Shown piece by piece: positions 2,813 through 8,538 of a stretch of 21,286 nucleotides of DNA. Source of the DNA: Flavobacteriales bacterium UBA4660 (GTDB lineage: Bacteria > Bacteroidota > Bacteroidia > Flavobacteriales_D > Sanyastnellaceae); the NCBI GenBank assembly GCA_002405435.1, contig DHLU01000041.1, forward strand, positions 1 through 21,286, read 5' to 3'. The number at the start of each line of letters is the position of its first letter. Position 1 is the first letter of the stretch. The notes beneath the pieces were generated by a model. It worked only from the letters and a program-made list of their open reading frames with translations, was not told where the DNA came from and ran no database searches. Position numbers and translations under genes: made by a program.

Positions 2813-3562
2813 TCAAAGAATGTTGATGCGGTCAGCGAGTTCGTCGCGGAAGTTTCCTCCAACCGGAATTTCTTTTCCAATGTCCTGCATAATCAGCTCG
2901 CTGCTCACGATAAACTCGATCTTGTCGAGGTTGACGATAAAGGACCGGTGAACCCGCTGAAAAGTTTTATGGGGCAGTTTCTTCTCGATATCCTTCATCG
3001 TACCATGGATGGTGAATTTGTGGTCGCGCGTGATGATCATCACATAATCTTTAAGCGCTTCCACATAGTAAACATCACTTGCATTGAGTTTGGTCAGCCT
3101 CGCATGGTGTTTGACAAAAAGGTAGTCTGCACTTTGTTTATAGCTGCTGAGTGATTTCAGCAGTTCGTTTTCAATTTTCAGTTCTTTCTCCTTACCGTGT
3201 TTGTGCACGGCCATTTCAATGCAGGTGTGAAGGTCAATCTCTTTAAACGGCTTCAGCACATAGCCATGCGGCTCGGAAATTTTAGCCTTTGCCAGGGTCG
3301 CTTCATCGCTGTGTGAGGTGAGGTAGATGACCGGTATGTCCTGGTCTCGCTTGATGGCCTGAGCCGCTTCTATACCTGTCATTTCCCCTTTCAGCTTGAT
3401 ATCCATAATTGCCAGGTCTGGCTTTAACTCCCTGGCCAGCTCAACCGCCTTTTCACCCGTATCTGCATAGCCGACTACATTATAGCCCATTTTTTTCAGG
3501 CTTTTTTCGATATCCTTTCGCACGATGCTCTCATCTTCGGTAATGAGAATTTTGATTTCCAT
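2813..3562 (-). CDS. LytTR-family response regulator
   Basis: A 249-residue two-domain response regulator. The receiver domain (about 1-120) has the acidic pocket E9-D10, the phospho-acceptor D54 (AIMDIKL), T82/S83 and K104 (LKPF). A short linker leads to a LytTR DNA-binding domain (about 150-248; DVYYVEALKDYVMI, FQRVHRSFIVNLDKIEF). On phosphorylation it would act as a transcription factor binding direct repeats upstream of its targets. I chose the ATG at 3562 (MEIKILITEDE): it begins exactly at the first receiver strand and leaves 10 bp after the kinase stop. An upstream in-frame start at 3589 would add nine residues and overlap the kinase. It is the last gene of the MORN-kinase-regulator operon, and the kinase is its obvious partner. 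Target genes cannot be read from this window. Confidence 0.93.
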   Translation of the reverse strand: MEIKILITEDESIVRKDIEKSLKKMGYNVVGYADTGEKAVELARELKPDLAIMDIKLKGEMTGIEAAQAIKRDQDIPVIYLTSHSDEATLAKAKISEPHGYVLKPFKEIDLHTCIEMAVHKHGKEKELKIENELLKSLSSYKQSADYLFVKHHARLTKLNASDVYYVEALKDYVMIITRDHKFTIHGTMKDIEKKLPHKTFQRVHRSFIVNLDKIEFIVSSELIMQDIGKEIPVGGNFRDELADRINIL

Positions 3563-3572
3563 GGTCTGCAGG

Positions 3573-6062
3573 TTATGATTTCTTTTCAAAGGTAATGGTG
3601 ATTGCTGTTCCTTTCACTGACCGAACATCGAGGGTGCCGTCGAGTTGTTCGGTCAGGGTGTACACGAGCTGGATGCCCAAGGAGTCCTGCTCGGCAAACT
3701 GAAAGTCAGCGGGAAGACCAATTCCGTCATCGGCTACCCTGAGGGTGACCTGCCCCTTTCGCTCTCTGATTTCCAATGTGATTTTCCCCTTTTTTCTACC
3801 CCTGAAGGCATATTTCAGCGCGTTGCTGATGAGCTCATTGACAATGAGGCCGCAGGGCACCGACTGGTCTATGCTCAGGTTGACCGGGTCGAGTTTGGTC
3901 ACCAGTTTTACCTCCGCCTGGCCGGTCTGGTAGCTTTGAAAGAGGTTGCTGGCCAAGGCCTGGAGGTATCCCCTGAAGTCGATGCTCGAGAAGTCGGTGG
4001 TACGGTAGAGGGTTTCATGGATGAACGACATGCTCTTTATACGCTGCTGGCTTTCCTTGAGCAGTTCTTTGGTGCGTTCGTCGCTGACGTACGAAGACTG
4101 CAGGCTCAGTATGCTCGATAAGACCTGTAGGTTGTTTTTTACACGGTGGTGTACCTCCTGTAGGGGCACTTCTTTTTCTTTCAGCGATTCGCGTATCCGG
4201 CGGTCTATTTGTTTGCGCTGCGTATTGTCGTAAACCAGACAAGACACTTCTTCAAGACGCTCATCTATGTAGACCGGGTTGACAAAAGCGAGCATCCACA
4301 CGGTATTTCCGTTTTTGTCGCGCAGGGCAAATTCAAACTGCTGGGGACGTCCACTAAATGCCTCATCCATTGCACCCAGTTGCCCCTGGTTGTGGATGGG
4401 ATCCATCAGGGGCTCCAGGTCTTTCCGGATATTTGAGCCCCGCCGGATGTTCAGCCCGAACTGCTCCTTCATGCTTTCACGGAAATTCTCATTGAGGGTG
4501 GTAATCCCGAAGTCGGGGTTCATTGTCCAGATCATCAGGTTTTCAGTGGAGTTGAAAATGGATTCCAGTTTGGCCTGTGTCTGTTTCCTTTCTTCAATCT
4601 GCAGGCGCAACTCCTCATTCATTTCTTCGGCGGCTTTCAGCCGGTATTGCTCGCGCAATAACTGAAGCCGCGTGCTGAGGTTGTCTGCAGTGACCTGTAT
4701 GGAAGGGCGGTTTTCGTAGACCGTGAGTGTCGCCTTAAGGCCCACAAAAATTTCGTTTCCCCCGCGGTCTGTAAGTTTCACCTCCCGATAAATGGCTTCT
4801 TCTCCTTCCCTGATTTTTTCAAAATCTTCACTTACTGTTCCCCTGAACGGTCGCGAGACAAAGTGGGTAAATTTTTTATCATATACCTCGTCCTCATCAG
4901 CGCATCCGAGCATCACCAGTCCGGCTTTGTTGACATATTTCATGAGGCCTTCGGTAAGTATAAAGACCCCATTGGGCGAGTTCTCCAACAGGTTTTTGAA
5001 CCGGTGCGCACTCTGCTCGAGCGCAAACTCGGCCTTTTTTCTGGCCGTGACATTGTACATCAATAATGCCTTCGTGCGAATCCCATGGTAGTCAACAAAA
5101 CCCCCGGAAAGCTCCAGGTACATCCATTCACCCCTGCCATTTACGCACCGTGCCTCAATTTTTCGCGTATGTTGCTGGTCGAGGCTTGTGCCTATTCTCC
5201 TCAGGTCGGCCGGGGATATGAAATCTGTGATGCGCCGCGCGATGGCACTCGACCGGTCTTTCAGGGAGAACAGGGCGGCAAACTGTTCATTGCAGTCGAT
5301 GATTACGTTCTGAGAAACAAAGGCTACCGCCTCCAGCGTTACATTGGAAAGTGCCCTAAACCGCTCTTCGCTTTCTCGAAGCGCTCCCTCAATTTTTTTC
5401 TTTTCAGAGATATCGATGAGCGTGCCCAGGATGATGTCTTCGTTTTTTTCTGTCTTTTCCAGAAACGCATTTTCCAGGCACGTGCATTCCGTTCCGTCTT
5501 TTCTCCGGAGGTCTATTTCGTAACTTGTTACTACCTTTTTCTGCTGAAGTTCATCGAGAAATTCCTTCCGTTTTCCAGGAAAAAGGTAAAAATCTTTTCC
5601 ATCGGTTCCGATAATTTCTTCTGATTTTTCGTAGCCCAGCAACCTGGCAAAGGCCTCGTTGCAGGCCACTATTTTTCCGTCTGATGCCACCTTGTATACA
5701 CCCGCTACATTACGTGTGAAGAGCGCGTCGTACTGAAGACCCGTAGCCCCTTCACCCCATTCCTGCAGATAACAGAGGGCGTGGGTGAAATCAGGTCTGA
5801 TTGCAGAGATATGCAACTGAAAATCTCCCCAGCCCAACTCAACATACCCTAACTCTTCCAACTTTCGAATGACCGACCGGCTGTTTTCCTGCCACGATGC
5901 CTGTCCGAGCGCAAACAGGAGGTTGTTTGATTCCCCCTCCTTCTCTCCAAGTAAGCGTCGGAATTGTTTGTTGGACTGCTCTACCTTCAGGTCCGATACC
6001 CTTACCACGCAGCGCGCTCCGCGTTCGTCCCTGAGATATTCTTCCCAACTACCCCCCATCAT
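3573..6062 (-). CDS. Multi-PAS HisKA_2-type sensor histidine kinase, soluble
   Basis: An 829-residue histidine kinase with no membrane segment, so a cytoplasmic sensor. Residues 1 to about 108 look like a degenerate PAS-type module. Clearer PAS domains follow at about 110-220, 232-340, 352-460 and 498-615, with a coiled coil at about 463-500. The dimerisation domain is HisKA_2 type (EVHHRVKNNLQ, likely phospho-site H639). The ATPase domain shows an N-box (NELISNALKYAF, N742 and N747), a G1 box (DDGIGLP, 778-784) and a G2 region (SLGIQL, about 794-799). The ATG at 6062 overlaps the TGA of the upstream MORN gene as ATGA, implying translational coupling; a second ATG follows directly. It presumably phosphorylates the adjacent LytTR regulator. 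No residues reveal a ligand or cofactor, so the input signal is unknown. Confidence 0.94.
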   Translation of the reverse strand: MMGGSWEEYLRDERGARCVVRVSDLKVEQSNKQFRRLLGEKEGESNNLLFALGQASWQENSRSVIRKLEELGYVELGWGDFQLHISAIRPDFTHALCYLQEWGEGATGLQYDALFTRNVAGVYKVASDGKIVACNEAFARLLGYEKSEEIIGTDGKDFYLFPGKRKEFLDELQQKKVVTSYEIDLRRKDGTECTCLENAFLEKTEKNEDIILGTLIDISEKKKIEGALRESEERFRALSNVTLEAVAFVSQNVIIDCNEQFAALFSLKDRSSAIARRITDFISPADLRRIGTSLDQQHTRKIEARCVNGRGEWMYLELSGGFVDYHGIRTKALLMYNVTARKKAEFALEQSAHRFKNLLENSPNGVFILTEGLMKYVNKAGLVMLGCADEDEVYDKKFTHFVSRPFRGTVSEDFEKIREGEEAIYREVKLTDRGGNEIFVGLKATLTVYENRPSIQVTADNLSTRLQLLREQYRLKAAEEMNEELRLQIEERKQTQAKLESIFNSTENLMIWTMNPDFGITTLNENFRESMKEQFGLNIRRGSNIRKDLEPLMDPIHNQGQLGAMDEAFSGRPQQFEFALRDKNGNTVWMLAFVNPVYIDERLEEVSCLVYDNTQRKQIDRRIRESLKEKEVPLQEVHHRVKNNLQVLSSILSLQSSYVSDERTKELLKESQQRIKSMSFIHETLYRTTDFSSIDFRGYLQALASNLFQSYQTGQAEVKLVTKLDPVNLSIDQSVPCGLIVNELISNALKYAFRGRKKGKITLEIRERKGQVTLRVADDGIGLPADFQFAEQDSLGIQLVYTLTEQLDGTLDVRSVKGTAITITFEKKS

Positions 6063-7573
6063 TCTTCAGACTTTGTTCTAATTTCTATTTTATCCCCATT
6101 AATGGCCACGGCTATGCCCATTTCGTAGGTTACCGAATGTGTCAACACACCGGTCGTGTCGTAATACTGCCATTCTCCCTGCAACTCTCCTCCCTCATAC
6201 TCCCCTTTCATTTTGGTAATGCCGTCAGCATACCAGTACCTGTGTTTGCCTGAGGGGAGACCATTGCTGTACTCTCCCTCAAAACCTGTTCGTCCATCCG
6301 CGTATTTCCAAATCCATTTGCCGTTTCTTTCTCCGTCAAGGTATTCGCCTTCCTCGGTGTGGTCATTTACCTGATGAAACCACTTCCCGTTTTTCAGCCC
6401 TGAAATGAATTCTCCCTGGGCGATAATTACCCCTGTGCTGTCGTATTCAATGCTGGTCCCGTCTTCTTTTCCTTTCCGGTAGTTTTCTTCCCTGCGGAGT
6501 GTACCATCAGCGAAATACCACTTCCAGTTTCCTGAGTAACTATCCGACTTGTAATTTCCTTTTTGCATCACCTTTCCGTTTTTAAAGTAAAACGTCCATG
6601 CTCCTTCCCGCTTTCCTTCAACATAACTTCCTTCAGCACTCAACTCACCTGTAGTAAAATAAAGTTTCCACGGTCCTGTGCGCCGTGACAAAGTGTCCAG
6701 CATACCTTCTCCCAGCAACACATCACGCGAAAAATCCCTGGTTGTCTGTAGCAGACCGTTTTCATCGTAGTAAAAAAAACTACCCTGCTTCATTCCCTTG
6801 TTGTAACCACCCACCACCCTGACCTTACCCGTCTCGTCATATTCCCTTCGTATATCCAAAATAAAATTGTTGTTGTCGTCTGTTACCAGCTGGTCCATGT
6901 CATAGGTCTCCAGCCGTTCGAGGCTTCCGTCTTTTTTGTAATACTTGAAAACTCCATTCTTTTTACCCGCCGTATAGTATCCTTCCGTCCGGGCCACCGA
7001 ACCTGGTGTCCACCAAGTCAACCAGGTTCCCGCGCGTTCCCCTTTTTCGTTGCTGCGGTTTATCCTTTCCTCTCCGTATAAAAACCCGTTTCTGTATGTC
7101 AACAGCGTTATGATTTCACCCGACTTGCTGTATTCCAGTCCCCTTCCTTCCTCTTTGTTATTAACAAAATTGATTTCCTTATGCAGCCCACCATCCGCAT
7201 AATAGTAGCGCGTAACCCCTTGTTTTACTCCTCGTTCCCAGGAGACACGATGGCTCAATACACCCTTATCCGTAAAGACCCTTTCTTCTCCCCACTTGAG
7301 ATCTTCGCGGTAGGTAATTTCTCTCTCCAGGGTACTGTCACTGCGGTAAAATTTCCAAAGAGAATCCAGCAGATAGTTTTTTCTGTTGCCCTCGGTTTTC
7401 AGGCCGCCGTCGTCGTAATAGGTTTTCCAGTACCCGTCTGGTTTTCCATTTTTCATACTACCTTCACTGGAAACCAGGCCATTGTCGTAATAGAATTTCA
7501 CATATTCGCCCTGGGCTGCAGCCAGTGCAGCCATGGACAGGCAAAGCAGGGTGATGATGTGTTCTTTTGTCAT
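6059..7573 (-). CDS. Exported MORN-variant (YwqK-like) repeat protein
   Basis: A 504-residue protein starting with a signal peptide (MTKEHIITLLCLSMAALAAAQ, cleavage probably after the Ala-rich stretch). The rest is tandem MORN-variant repeats of about 20-25 residues, roughly 18 copies. Each has a core like G-x-W-x-x-Y-x-x-x-G-x-L-x-x-E-G-x-Y-x-x-G-x-x-x-G, e.g. GPWKLYFTTGELSAEGSY, GAWTFYFKNGKVMQKGNY and GNWKWYFADGTLRREENY. Homologues are often auto-named 'toxin-antitoxin system YwqK family antitoxin', but nothing here indicates a toxin-antitoxin role. A longer frame reaches a TTG at 7624. I chose the ATG at 7573 because it gives a proper signal peptide and sits just after a -7-like element. 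It is the first gene of the operon with the PAS kinase and LytTR regulator, so a surface or envelope role linked to that signalling is possible but inferred. Confidence 0.88.
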   Translation of the reverse strand: MTKEHIITLLCLSMAALAAAQGEYVKFYYDNGLVSSEGSMKNGKPDGYWKTYYDDGGLKTEGNRKNYLLDSLWKFYRSDSTLEREITYREDLKWGEERVFTDKGVLSHRVSWERGVKQGVTRYYYADGGLHKEINFVNNKEEGRGLEYSKSGEIITLLTYRNGFLYGEERINRSNEKGERAGTWLTWWTPGSVARTEGYYTAGKKNGVFKYYKKDGSLERLETYDMDQLVTDDNNNFILDIRREYDETGKVRVVGGYNKGMKQGSFFYYDENGLLQTTRDFSRDVLLGEGMLDTLSRRTGPWKLYFTTGELSAEGSYVEGKREGAWTFYFKNGKVMQKGNYKSDSYSGNWKWYFADGTLRREENYRKGKEDGTSIEYDSTGVIIAQGEFISGLKNGKWFHQVNDHTEEGEYLDGERNGKWIWKYADGRTGFEGEYSNGLPSGKHRYWYADGITKMKGEYEGGELQGEWQYYDTTGVLTHSVTYEMGIAVAINGDKIEIRTKSEE

Positions 7574-7578
7574 TGAGG

Positions 7579-7586
7579 CAAAATTG
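7579..7586 (-). promoter_or_regulatory. Probable -7 element for the MORN-kinase-regulator operon
   Basis: On the - strand the sequence CAATTTTG matches the Bacteroidota -7 consensus TAnnTTTG at all but the first base. It ends 5 bp upstream of the ATG at 7573, so a start site about 6 nt downstream would give an essentially leaderless mRNA. No convincing -33 element is present. Confidence 0.4.
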
Positions 7587-7648
7587 CGCGATTTCTTTTC
7601 CTTTCTGCTCAATTTCCTTTCCAAAGTTCTCCTTTACACACCTTACCC

Positions 7649-7690
7649 ATTACTATTATATTTTAAAAAGAATAGTTATAGATCATTAGG
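7649..7690. other. AT-rich tract, candidate DNA unwinding element
   Basis: A 42-bp stretch made almost entirely of A and T (includes TATTATATTTTAAAAAG at about 7654-7670) in an otherwise GC-balanced window. It lies just left of the abutting DnaA-box-like pair at 7693-7710 and marks the point where G/C strand bias changes sign. It could alternatively be ordinary promoter-proximal AT-rich DNA, although the nearest start codon is about 75 bp away. Confidence 0.4.
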
Positions 7691-7692
7691 GC

Positions 7693-7710
7693 TGTTAATA
7701 CTGTTGAAAA
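7693..7710 (+). repeat. Two abutting DnaA-box-like 9-mers
   Basis: TGTTAATAC and TGTTGAAAA follow each other with no gap and differ from TGTGGATAA-type boxes at two or three positions each. A similar abutting pair, TGTTGATAT-CGTGGGAAA, occurs at 8029-8046 at the other end of the gene-free region. Phased weak boxes next to an AT-rich tract are characteristic of origins, but these matches are degenerate. Confidence 0.4.
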
Positions 7711-7993
7711 GCCTCGTGGAGGAGGGATGCGGAACAGGATATACCCAATCGACAAACAGACTATGAACAAGCTTTCAACGGTGTTATGGGCTGAATTACA
7801 CCCAAATGAGCGTGCTGTACCCAACGTCGCGTACAGAGGGCAAGCAGGGATGTGCATAGGACCGGGGTTGCTCCGTATAGTGCACAGAACTGTGGAGAAA
7901 GTGGGGATAAGAACTGACAGAAGAAACAACGCTGGGGTGAAAACTTCATTAAGCCAGTACATGCCAGGGAAAAGCAATTTTGTTTGTGCTTTG

Positions 7994-8002
7994 TTATGCA
8001 CA
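7994..8002 (-). repeat. DnaA box TTATGCACA
   Basis: An exact match to the general DnaA-box consensus TTATNCACA, within the candidate origin. It is the only perfect box noticed in this region. A single 9-mer can occur by chance, so its weight comes from the neighbouring degenerate boxes and the strand-bias switch. Confidence 0.45.
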
Positions 8003-8084
8003 GCTATCACACAGAAAAACACCGCCTTTGTTGATATCGTGGGAAACTTCGCGCAAGGGTATGATAAATAGGGGATTGAGGCTA

Positions 8085-8092
8085 TATTTTTG
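8085..8092 (+). promoter_or_regulatory. -7 promoter element of the rpiB operon
   Basis: TATTTTTG is an exact match to the Bacteroidota -7 consensus TAnnTTTG. It ends 5 bp before the rpiB ATG at 8098, so transcription would start at or next to the start codon and the mRNA would be leaderless or nearly so. No clear -33 TTTG lies at the expected distance upstream. Confidence 0.55.
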
Positions 8093-8097
8093 ACCCT

Positions 8098-8538
8098 ATG
8101 CAGCATATTACCATTCACGTGGGCAGTGACCATGCCGGAGTAGAATTAAAAGAACAAGTGGTGAAATACCTCCAGGCACAGGGCCGGCGGGTGGAAGACC
8201 ATGGCACCTACGACACGGGGCGCTGCGATTACCCTGATTATGCACATGCAACCGCAAAGGGAGTGCTGTCAGACGGGGGTAGCGGCGTATTGATTTGTGG
8301 CAGTGCCAACGGAGTTTGTATGGCGGCTAACAAACACGCAGGTATCAGGGCAGCCTTGTGCTGGAATAAAGAAATAGCAGCACTGGCAAGGGCACACAAT
8401 GATGCCAACATCATTTGCCTGCCTGCGCGATTTATTACGGCAGAAGAGGCAATGGCCATACTGGATGCGTTTTTCAAGACACCCTTTGAAGGGGGAAGAC
8501 ACAGCGCGCGCGTGGAGAAAATAGACCTTGAACAATGA
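8098..8538 (+). CDS. rpiB: Ribose-5-phosphate isomerase B
   Basis: Interconverts ribose 5-phosphate and ribulose 5-phosphate in the non-oxidative pentose phosphate pathway (cytoplasmic). The 146-residue length is normal for RpiB/LacAB proteins. Motifs are GSDHAG (9-14), GVLICGSANGVCMAANKHAGIR with the catalytic Cys67, AHNDANI and the C-terminal GGRHSARV. The ATG at 8098 starts directly at the first strand (MQHITIHVGSDHAG) and follows a -7 element at very short distance. The stop overlaps the M28 peptidase start as ATGA (8535-8538), so the two are translationally coupled although no functional link is evident. Confidence 0.96.
   Translation: MQHITIHVGSDHAGVELKEQVVKYLQAQGRRVEDHGTYDTGRCDYPDYAHATAKGVLSDGGSGVLICGSANGVCMAANKHAGIRAALCWNKEIAALARAHNDANIICLPARFITAEEAMAILDAFFKTPFEGGRHSARVEKIDLEQ

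What the first reader, a model, noticed from the sequence alone, without database searches (positions are those of the whole stretch)
7587..8047. Candidate chromosomal replication origin between divergent units
The only large gene-free stretch (524 bp between start codons 7573 and 8098) contains an AT-rich tract and about nine DnaA-box-like 9-mers. One is a perfect TTATGCACA (7994-8002). Two are abutting pairs at opposite ends (7693-7710 and 8029-8046). No coding gene explains it. The boxes are mostly degenerate, but Bacteroidota origins often lie away from dnaA and carry such weak tandem boxes.
Basis: partly seen in the sequence, partly recalled or inferred. Interest (0 to 1): 0.7.

Follow-up and report, generated by a model that had tools for sequence, protein, structure and literature searches.

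The report
Flavobacteriales chromosome replication origin (oriC)
The gap between two outward-facing genes is very probably where this bacterium starts copying its chromosome; it is an ordinary kind of element, but its place beside rpiB and away from dnaA recurs in many relatives of the same order.

Summary
The 524-bp gap 7574-8097 between a MORN_2-repeat gene and rpiB is very probably oriC of this Flavobacteriales MAG. (1) GC skew switches sign here. In two single-contig relatives the sampled chromosome-wide skew minimum falls at or within about 15 kb of rpiB. Of five further relatives, three show the switch clearly, one weakly, one not. dnaA lies 0.46 and 1.65 Mb away in the two single-contig relatives. 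(2) A MORN_2 homologue faces rpiB in 45 of 51 genomes. (3) DnaA-like boxes are enriched; the clade form is TATN(A/C)ACA, 105 against 15.4 expected in 49 gaps, 5 against 0.20 here. (4) A conserved block at 7650-7712 (AT-rich tract, TAG repeats, GGC, two tandem boxes) resembles the basal unwinding system; a profile built without this genome finds it at E = 4.5e-8. Against: the published-style search rule did not beat random sequences, and relative G038 has few boxes. Ori-Finder placement of oriC beside rpiB is in print for Tenacibaculum, same order (PMC9864904, passages), so this is a new member of a known kind. No replication experiment was available.

The parts
7574..8097 (.). Intergenic region taken as oriC (core about 7650-8040)
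7650..7689 (+). AT-rich tract (85% A+T), candidate DNA unwinding element
   Evidence: aligned with relatives
7673..7689 (+). TAG repeats (3'-GAT-5' trio-like; TAG at 7673-7675, 7679-7681, 7687-7689); only the three trios next to the spacer (7681-7689) fit the .A. rule in frame
   Evidence: (37 TAG against 16.4 in 17 genomes)
7690..7692 (+). GC spacer GGC between last TAG and first box; this distance is 3 bp in 10 of 17 genomes (15 of the 17 have a TAG)
7693..7701 (-). DnaA-like box GTATTAACA (proximal)
7702..7710 (-). DnaA-like box TTTTCAACA (abutting)
7762..7769 (+). DnaA-like word TATGAACA
7851..7859 (-). DnaA-like box CTATGCACA
7891..7899 (-). DnaA-like box TTCTCCACA
7902..7910 (-). DnaA-like box TTATCCCCA
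7994..8002 (+). DnaA-like box TTATGCACA
8029..8037 (-). DnaA-like box ATATCAACA
8238..8246 (+). Further TTATGCACA inside rpiB coding sequence (may or may not belong)
6059..7573 (-). Left flanking gene, MORN_2-repeat protein, transcribed away from the gap
8098..8538 (+). Right flanking gene rpiB (PF02502), transcribed away from the gap

Best explanation
The gap is the chromosomal origin oriC. DnaA binds the variant boxes spread over 7693-8037. From the tandem pair at 7693-7710 it extends across the 3-bp GC spacer onto the TAG-repeat strand and opens the AT-rich tract at 7650-7689. DnaB is then loaded and two forks leave in opposite directions, each co-directional with its flanking gene (MORN_2 leftward, rpiB-M28 rightward). 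Shown here: place, composition, boxes, conserved block, synteny, skew. Inferred from known DnaA biology: binding, opening and helicase loading.
For: GC and AT skew switch sign at 7.5-8 kb of the window; 13 of 17 2-kb steps from there to the contig end are positive. In G012 (same family, 4.10 Mb, one contig; 20 samples of 20 kb) cumulative skew is lowest at the rpiB sample; in 5-kb steps around rpiB the lowest point is 10-15 kb past it. In G038 (same order, 3.98 Mb, one contig) rpiB lies at base 880 and the lowest point is at the contig ends. Clear switch also in G039, G042, G009. dnaA lies elsewhere. MORN_2 homologue faces rpiB in 45 of 51 genomes. With the recalled consensus TTATCCACA and one mismatch, 48 boxes against 12.9 expected in 700 bp before rpiB in 51 genomes. 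TATNMACA 105 against 15.4 +- 4.2 in 49 gaps; the rpiB gap ranks first of 55 gaps in the G012 sample. Profile of the block without this genome: E 4.5e-8 here; with G012 also left out, the rpiB gap is the only hit in 620 kb of G012 (E 0.0093). TAG on the expected strand 37 against 16.4 +- 3.7, 0 of 2000 letter shuffles. Ori-Finder puts oriC adjacent to rpiB in 6 of 7 circular Tenacibaculum chromosomes and near it in the seventh (PMC9864904, passages read).
Against: No TTATCCACA in the gap. G038 has one TATNMACA in its gap (0.47 expected) and no profile hit; its skew curve also has local reversals (samples at 0.42 and 0.63 Mb negative, 3.91-3.94 Mb positive). In G012 another place (L122, near 1.58 Mb) ties with the rpiB gap for boxes per 500 bp. 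9 of 49 gaps have no TATNMACA, 7 of them under 400 bp. The unwinding-system search did not beat random sequences here (p 0.29) or overall (5 of 49 at p up to 0.05; 2 of 49 in the wrong-side control). G049 shows only a weak skew change and G054 none. Boxes other than the proximal one are not conserved in position. The own genome is 261 contigs, so its own skew minimum cannot be located. No read-depth or binding data.
Confidence: 0.9

Rival explanations
1. The origin is close by (within about 10-20 kb) but not in this gap; the gap merely lies at the skew switch because two divergent operons meet here.
For: Skew resolution is 5 kb in the sampled relatives, and in G012 the lowest point is 10-15 kb past rpiB. 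G038's gap is poor in boxes.
Against: In the own 41-kb contig the gap is the single densest place for the boxes. The conserved block is in the gap. In G039, G042 and G009 the sign differs over 70 kb or more to either side, beyond one operon pair.
Confidence: 0.06
2. The gap is a shared regulatory region of the MORN_2 and rpiB genes, with DnaA or another factor acting as transcription regulator at the boxes, not an origin.
For: The gap lies between divergent genes; four sigma-70-like promoter matches in 7500-8200 against 1.1 expected.
Against: It does not explain the chromosome-scale skew minimum at or near rpiB in two single-contig relatives.
Confidence: 0.03
3. Chance: an AT-rich gap with box-like words and nothing conserved.
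For: The boxes are individually weak and a perfect E. coli-type box is absent.
Against: Box enrichment, profile E 4.5e-8, synteny in 45 of 51, skew.
Confidence: 0.01

Closest known systems
Predicted oriC of Tenacibaculum (Flavobacteriaceae), adjacent to rpiB (PMC9864904; passages read)
   Same: Same order; origin next to rpiB.
   Different: There an Ori-Finder prediction, without description of elements in the passages read; here skew, synteny and a conserved block are compared across families.
Basal unwinding system (BUS) of Bacillus subtilis oriC: DnaA-boxes 6/7, spacer, DnaA-trios (PMC8287927 and PMC6669920, passages read)
   Same: Tandem boxes, short spacer, then 3'-GAT-5' repeats on one strand in AT-rich DNA; the spacer from the farther box is 12 bp, within the reported 10-13 peak.
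   Different: Box form is TTATNAACA-like; only three trios in frame here; origin not beside dnaA; activity untested.
Blattabacterium strain Bge (PMC2768785, passages read; its place in Flavobacteriales is recalled)
   Same: Origin placed by GC skew, not at dnaA.
   Different: That genome lacks dnaA and DnaA boxes, and its origin was put in dapB, not beside rpiB; the arrangement is therefore not universal if that order assignment holds.
Escherichia coli oriC (recalled)
   Same: Origin away from dnaA, with strong and weak DnaA boxes and an AT-rich unwinding element.
   Different: Different flanking genes; 13-mers and GATC sites were not looked for here; no TTATCCACA here.

Membership tests
bacterial chromosomal oriC | Lies at the GC-skew minimum | tested here: met
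   Met within sampling (5-20 kb steps) in G012 and G038 and as a clear sign change in 3 of 5 further relatives; own contig agrees locally, own genome too fragmented
bacterial chromosomal oriC | Cluster of DnaA boxes above chance | tested here: met
   not met in relative G038
bacterial chromosomal oriC | AT-rich unwinding region next to boxes | tested here: met
   85% A+T at 7650-7689 against 57% for the gap; actual opening untested
bacterial chromosomal oriC | Conserved place and flanking genes among relatives | tested here: met
   45 of 51 genomes
bacterial chromosomal oriC | Replication starts here in cells / supports autonomous replication | not testable with these tools
   needs read depth or a plasmid assay
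DnaA-box/DnaA-trio basal unwinding system | DnaA-box (pair), spacer of 0-16 bp, at least three .A. trios (PMC8287927) | tested here: inconclusive
   Pattern present with the clade box form (TTTTCAACA, spacer 12, GAT TAC TAG), but p 0.29 against random sequences
DnaA-box/DnaA-trio basal unwinding system | 3'-GAT-5' enriched next to the box on the expected strand | tested here: met
   37 against 16.4 +- 3.7 over 17 aligned genomes; complementary word 2 against 3.9; rows chosen by the alignment, so not blind
DnaA-box/DnaA-trio basal unwinding system | DnaA-dependent strand opening | not testable with these tools
   needs purified DnaA

The most novel reading that the evidence does not exclude
Many Flavobacteriales share an oriC architecture unlinked from dnaA and fixed between a MORN_2 gene and rpiB, with a shifted DnaA-box consensus (TTATNAACA, A at position 6) and a rigid unwinding module TAG-repeats / 3-bp G-rich spacer / TGTTNATNC, i.e. 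an order-level variant of the basal unwinding system.
Probability: 0.55. Interest if true: 0.55.

Novelty: new member of a known kind. Interest (0 to 1): 0.45.

Why it matters
Ori-Finder 2022's default cues are dnaA as neighbour and TTATCCACA as box, adjustable by lineage (PMC10225481, passages); both defaults are of little help at this locus. A neighbour pair (MORN_2/rpiB), a clade box form and a short conserved module would help to place origins in draft genomes and MAGs of this order, which replication-rate estimates from read depth need. It also gives a compact DNA target for testing whether the unwinding system known from Bacillus works in Bacteroidota.

Tried and rejected
Coding gene in the gap: no support. 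Structured RNA: none in Rfam; single-strand fold of 7640-7720 no better than shuffles (z 0.18). Repeats: none found in 7560-8110. An EM motif search ran away to a low-complexity motif (1660 sites) and was dropped for word counts. The box-trio search did not beat random sequences. Rival box clusters in the own genome: C42 (three TTATNMACA within 0.8 kb) and C44 (three TATNMACA within 120 bp) lie in or beside ORFs, and the profile does not hit the fetched parts of these contigs. Only the first 100 of 394 TATNMACA places were listed, so uniqueness of the cluster in the whole genome is not shown for that word; 88 TTATNMACA were listed.

Rows dropped and choices: of 53 genomes with RpiB (of 60 searched, own included) 51 were used; G010 (match cut by contig ends) and G052 (region limit) were not. 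Of the 51, G043 (169 bp upstream only) and G047 (gap not definable) were left out of the 49 gaps. Gap left ends were typed in from ORF starts, that of G031 by analogy with G012. The six genomes without a MORN_2 hit are G026, G031, G043, G044, G047, G054; G031 and G043 were not tested, since the left frame picked by the script was too short, and G031 has a 229-aa frame there, so it is probably a miss. G025 and G006 were left out of the profile. In one search, L032, L034, L035 and L037 were left out as same-order or likely so (L037 by guess), and one more locus for lack of upstream sequence; the other 75 are mostly of other orders by title only, and L043, titled Chryseobacterium, would be Flavobacteriales by name (recalled). 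Expected counts come from first-order Markov sequences, those from letter shuffles.

Full report
The window is contig C48:1-21286 of a genome of 2.80 Mb in 261 contigs, 78.6% complete. So the organism is a member of Flavobacteriales by the titles of its relatives.

Observation. The gap 7574-8097 separates a MORN_2-repeat gene (leftward) from rpiB (rightward). It has no perfect TTATCCACA, three boxes with at most one mismatch (0.15 expected; 0 of 300 Markov sequences reach three) and six with at most two (1.8 expected; 1 of 300). ORFs in the gap have no family match and no convincing tblastn match in 48 relatives' gaps, and no RNA family matches.

Skew. In the window GC skew is negative for about 3 kb left of the gap, near zero further left, and positive to its right. 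Two divergent operons alone could produce that; relatives in large contigs decide. In G012 (same family, one contig) 20 samples of 20 kb put the minimum of cumulative skew at the rpiB sample, and 5-kb steps put the lowest point 10-15 kb past rpiB at 3,633,429. In G038 (same order, one contig) rpiB is at base 880 and the minimum is at the contig ends, with local reversals elsewhere. Large contigs of five more genomes were sampled out to 120-310 kb. G039: 5 of 5 negative before and 5 of 5 positive after. G042: 5 of 5 and 3 of 3. G009: 3 of 3 and 2 of 3. G049: 1 of 5 and 5 of 5 (weak). G054: 2 of 3 and 2 of 3 with means near zero (none); G054 also lacks the MORN_2 neighbour. dnaA is 1.65 Mb from rpiB in G012 and 0.46 Mb in G038.

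Synteny. RpiB was found in 53 of 60 genomes searched, own included. In 51 of these the upstream side was read; a homologue of the window's MORN_2 protein faces rpiB in 45 of 51, own included. The gap is 273-591 bp, median 462, in 49 genomes.

Boxes. With TTATCCACA and one mismatch, the 700 bp before rpiB hold 34 boxes against 8.7 expected in 34 same-family genomes and 14 against 4.3 in 17 others. A word count over the 49 gaps gave TTATGAACA, TATCAACA, TATTAACAA and relatives among the top words: DnaA boxes with A in place of C at position 6. It also gave TAGGGGTGT, the junction of the block described below (5 genomes against 0.05). TTATNMACA occurs 53 times against 6.5 expected, TATNMACA 105 against 15.4 +- 4.2; the own gap has 5 against 0.20. 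Substitution counts keep T4, A7 and C8 most strictly. The word was derived from these gaps, so controls matter. Gaps of at least 200 bp in 620 kb of G012 hold 0.26 per 450 bp, with the rpiB gap first of 55, though in sliding 500-bp windows it ties with one other place, L122. In 560 kb of G038 the rpiB gap is not special. In 75 loci mostly of other orders the 450 bp before rpiB hold 30 against 15.6, 4 loci with three or more, against 17 of 49 gaps in the order. In the own 41-kb contig the gap is the densest place.

Conserved block. Aligning 19 gaps shows a block near the MORN_2 side: T-rich/A-rich tract, TAG repeats, a G-rich triplet, then TGTTNATNC in most rows. A profile from 16 rows without this genome finds window 7654-7712 at E 4.5e-8 in 58.6 kb of the own genome (both strands); the only other row is an opposite-strand echo of the same tract at E 0.029. 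A profile that also leaves out G012 finds only the rpiB gap in G012's 620 kb (E 0.0093), nothing in 560 kb of G038, and passes the inclusion line in 10 of 32 other upstream regions. In 17 aligned genomes the 36 bp before the box hold 37 TAG against 16.4 +- 3.7 in letter shuffles (0 of 2000); the complementary word CTA is 2 against 3.9, and GAT read on the same strand is 8 against 16.7. The last TAG ends 3 bp before the box in 10 of 17; two of the 17 have no TAG. These rows were chosen by the alignment, so the test is not blind. The pattern matches the basal unwinding system described for Bacillus: box pair, spacer, 3'-GAT-5' trios (PMC8287927, passages read). A search by that paper's rule with the clade box, scored in my own way, picks this site in the window (TTTTCAACA, spacer 12, GAT TAC TAG) but is not above random sequences (p 0.29), nor over all 49 gaps (5 at p up to 0.05). 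The module is therefore likely but not proven.

The initiator is present: the own DnaA, 476 aa, is an open frame in C196 with a DHATVLHACR motif near its end (that this is the box-reading motif is recalled).

Known or new. Ori-Finder predicted origins adjacent to rpiB in six of seven circular Tenacibaculum chromosomes and near it in the seventh (PMC9864904, passages read); Tenacibaculum is Flavobacteriales. In Blattabacterium, which lacks dnaA, an origin was placed by skew in dapB (PMC2768785, passages read). Searches for DnaA-trio with Bacteroidetes, for oriC with Flavobacteriia and DnaA boxes and for origin of replication with rpiB and Flavobacterium found no paper in the held library; the name Bacteroidota was not searched. 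A search for three box words found 31 papers; 15 were seen as a listing, one of them on an origin (a cyanobacterium, PMC4674748), none opened. Listings were not opened either. So the place of the origin has a published precedent; the box form and the module were not found described within those searches.

Verdict: oriC, confidence 0.9; new member of a known kind; moderate interest.

Noticed in passing
window 8535-8538 and relatives G002, G004, G009, G013, G014, G021, G023, G028, G029, G032: rpiB and the M28 peptidase gene overlap by four bases here; in 10 of 53 genomes the RpiB match sits in an open frame of 655-734 aa, perhaps an RpiB-peptidase fusion.
   Followed up: no
L193 (G012:C1:1983689): dnaA lies 1.65 Mb from the inferred origin on a 4.10-Mb chromosome, nearer the sampled skew maximum than the minimum.
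   Followed up: partly
L237:3847-4640 (G000 C42): Three TTATNMACA within 0.8 kb, beside an ORF that looks by eye like a sigma factor; a possible DnaA-binding cluster away from the origin.
   Followed up: partly
L238:2540-2659 (G000 C44:18039-18158): Three box-like words within 120 bp inside a 401-aa ORF whose function was not searched.
   Followed up: partly
L122 (G012, near 1.58 Mb): A second place with three TATNMACA per 500 bp, close to the sampled skew maximum.
   Followed up: no
window 2813-6062: LytTR response regulator and PAS-rich HisKA_2 kinase directly downstream of the MORN_2 gene in the same direction.
   Followed up: no
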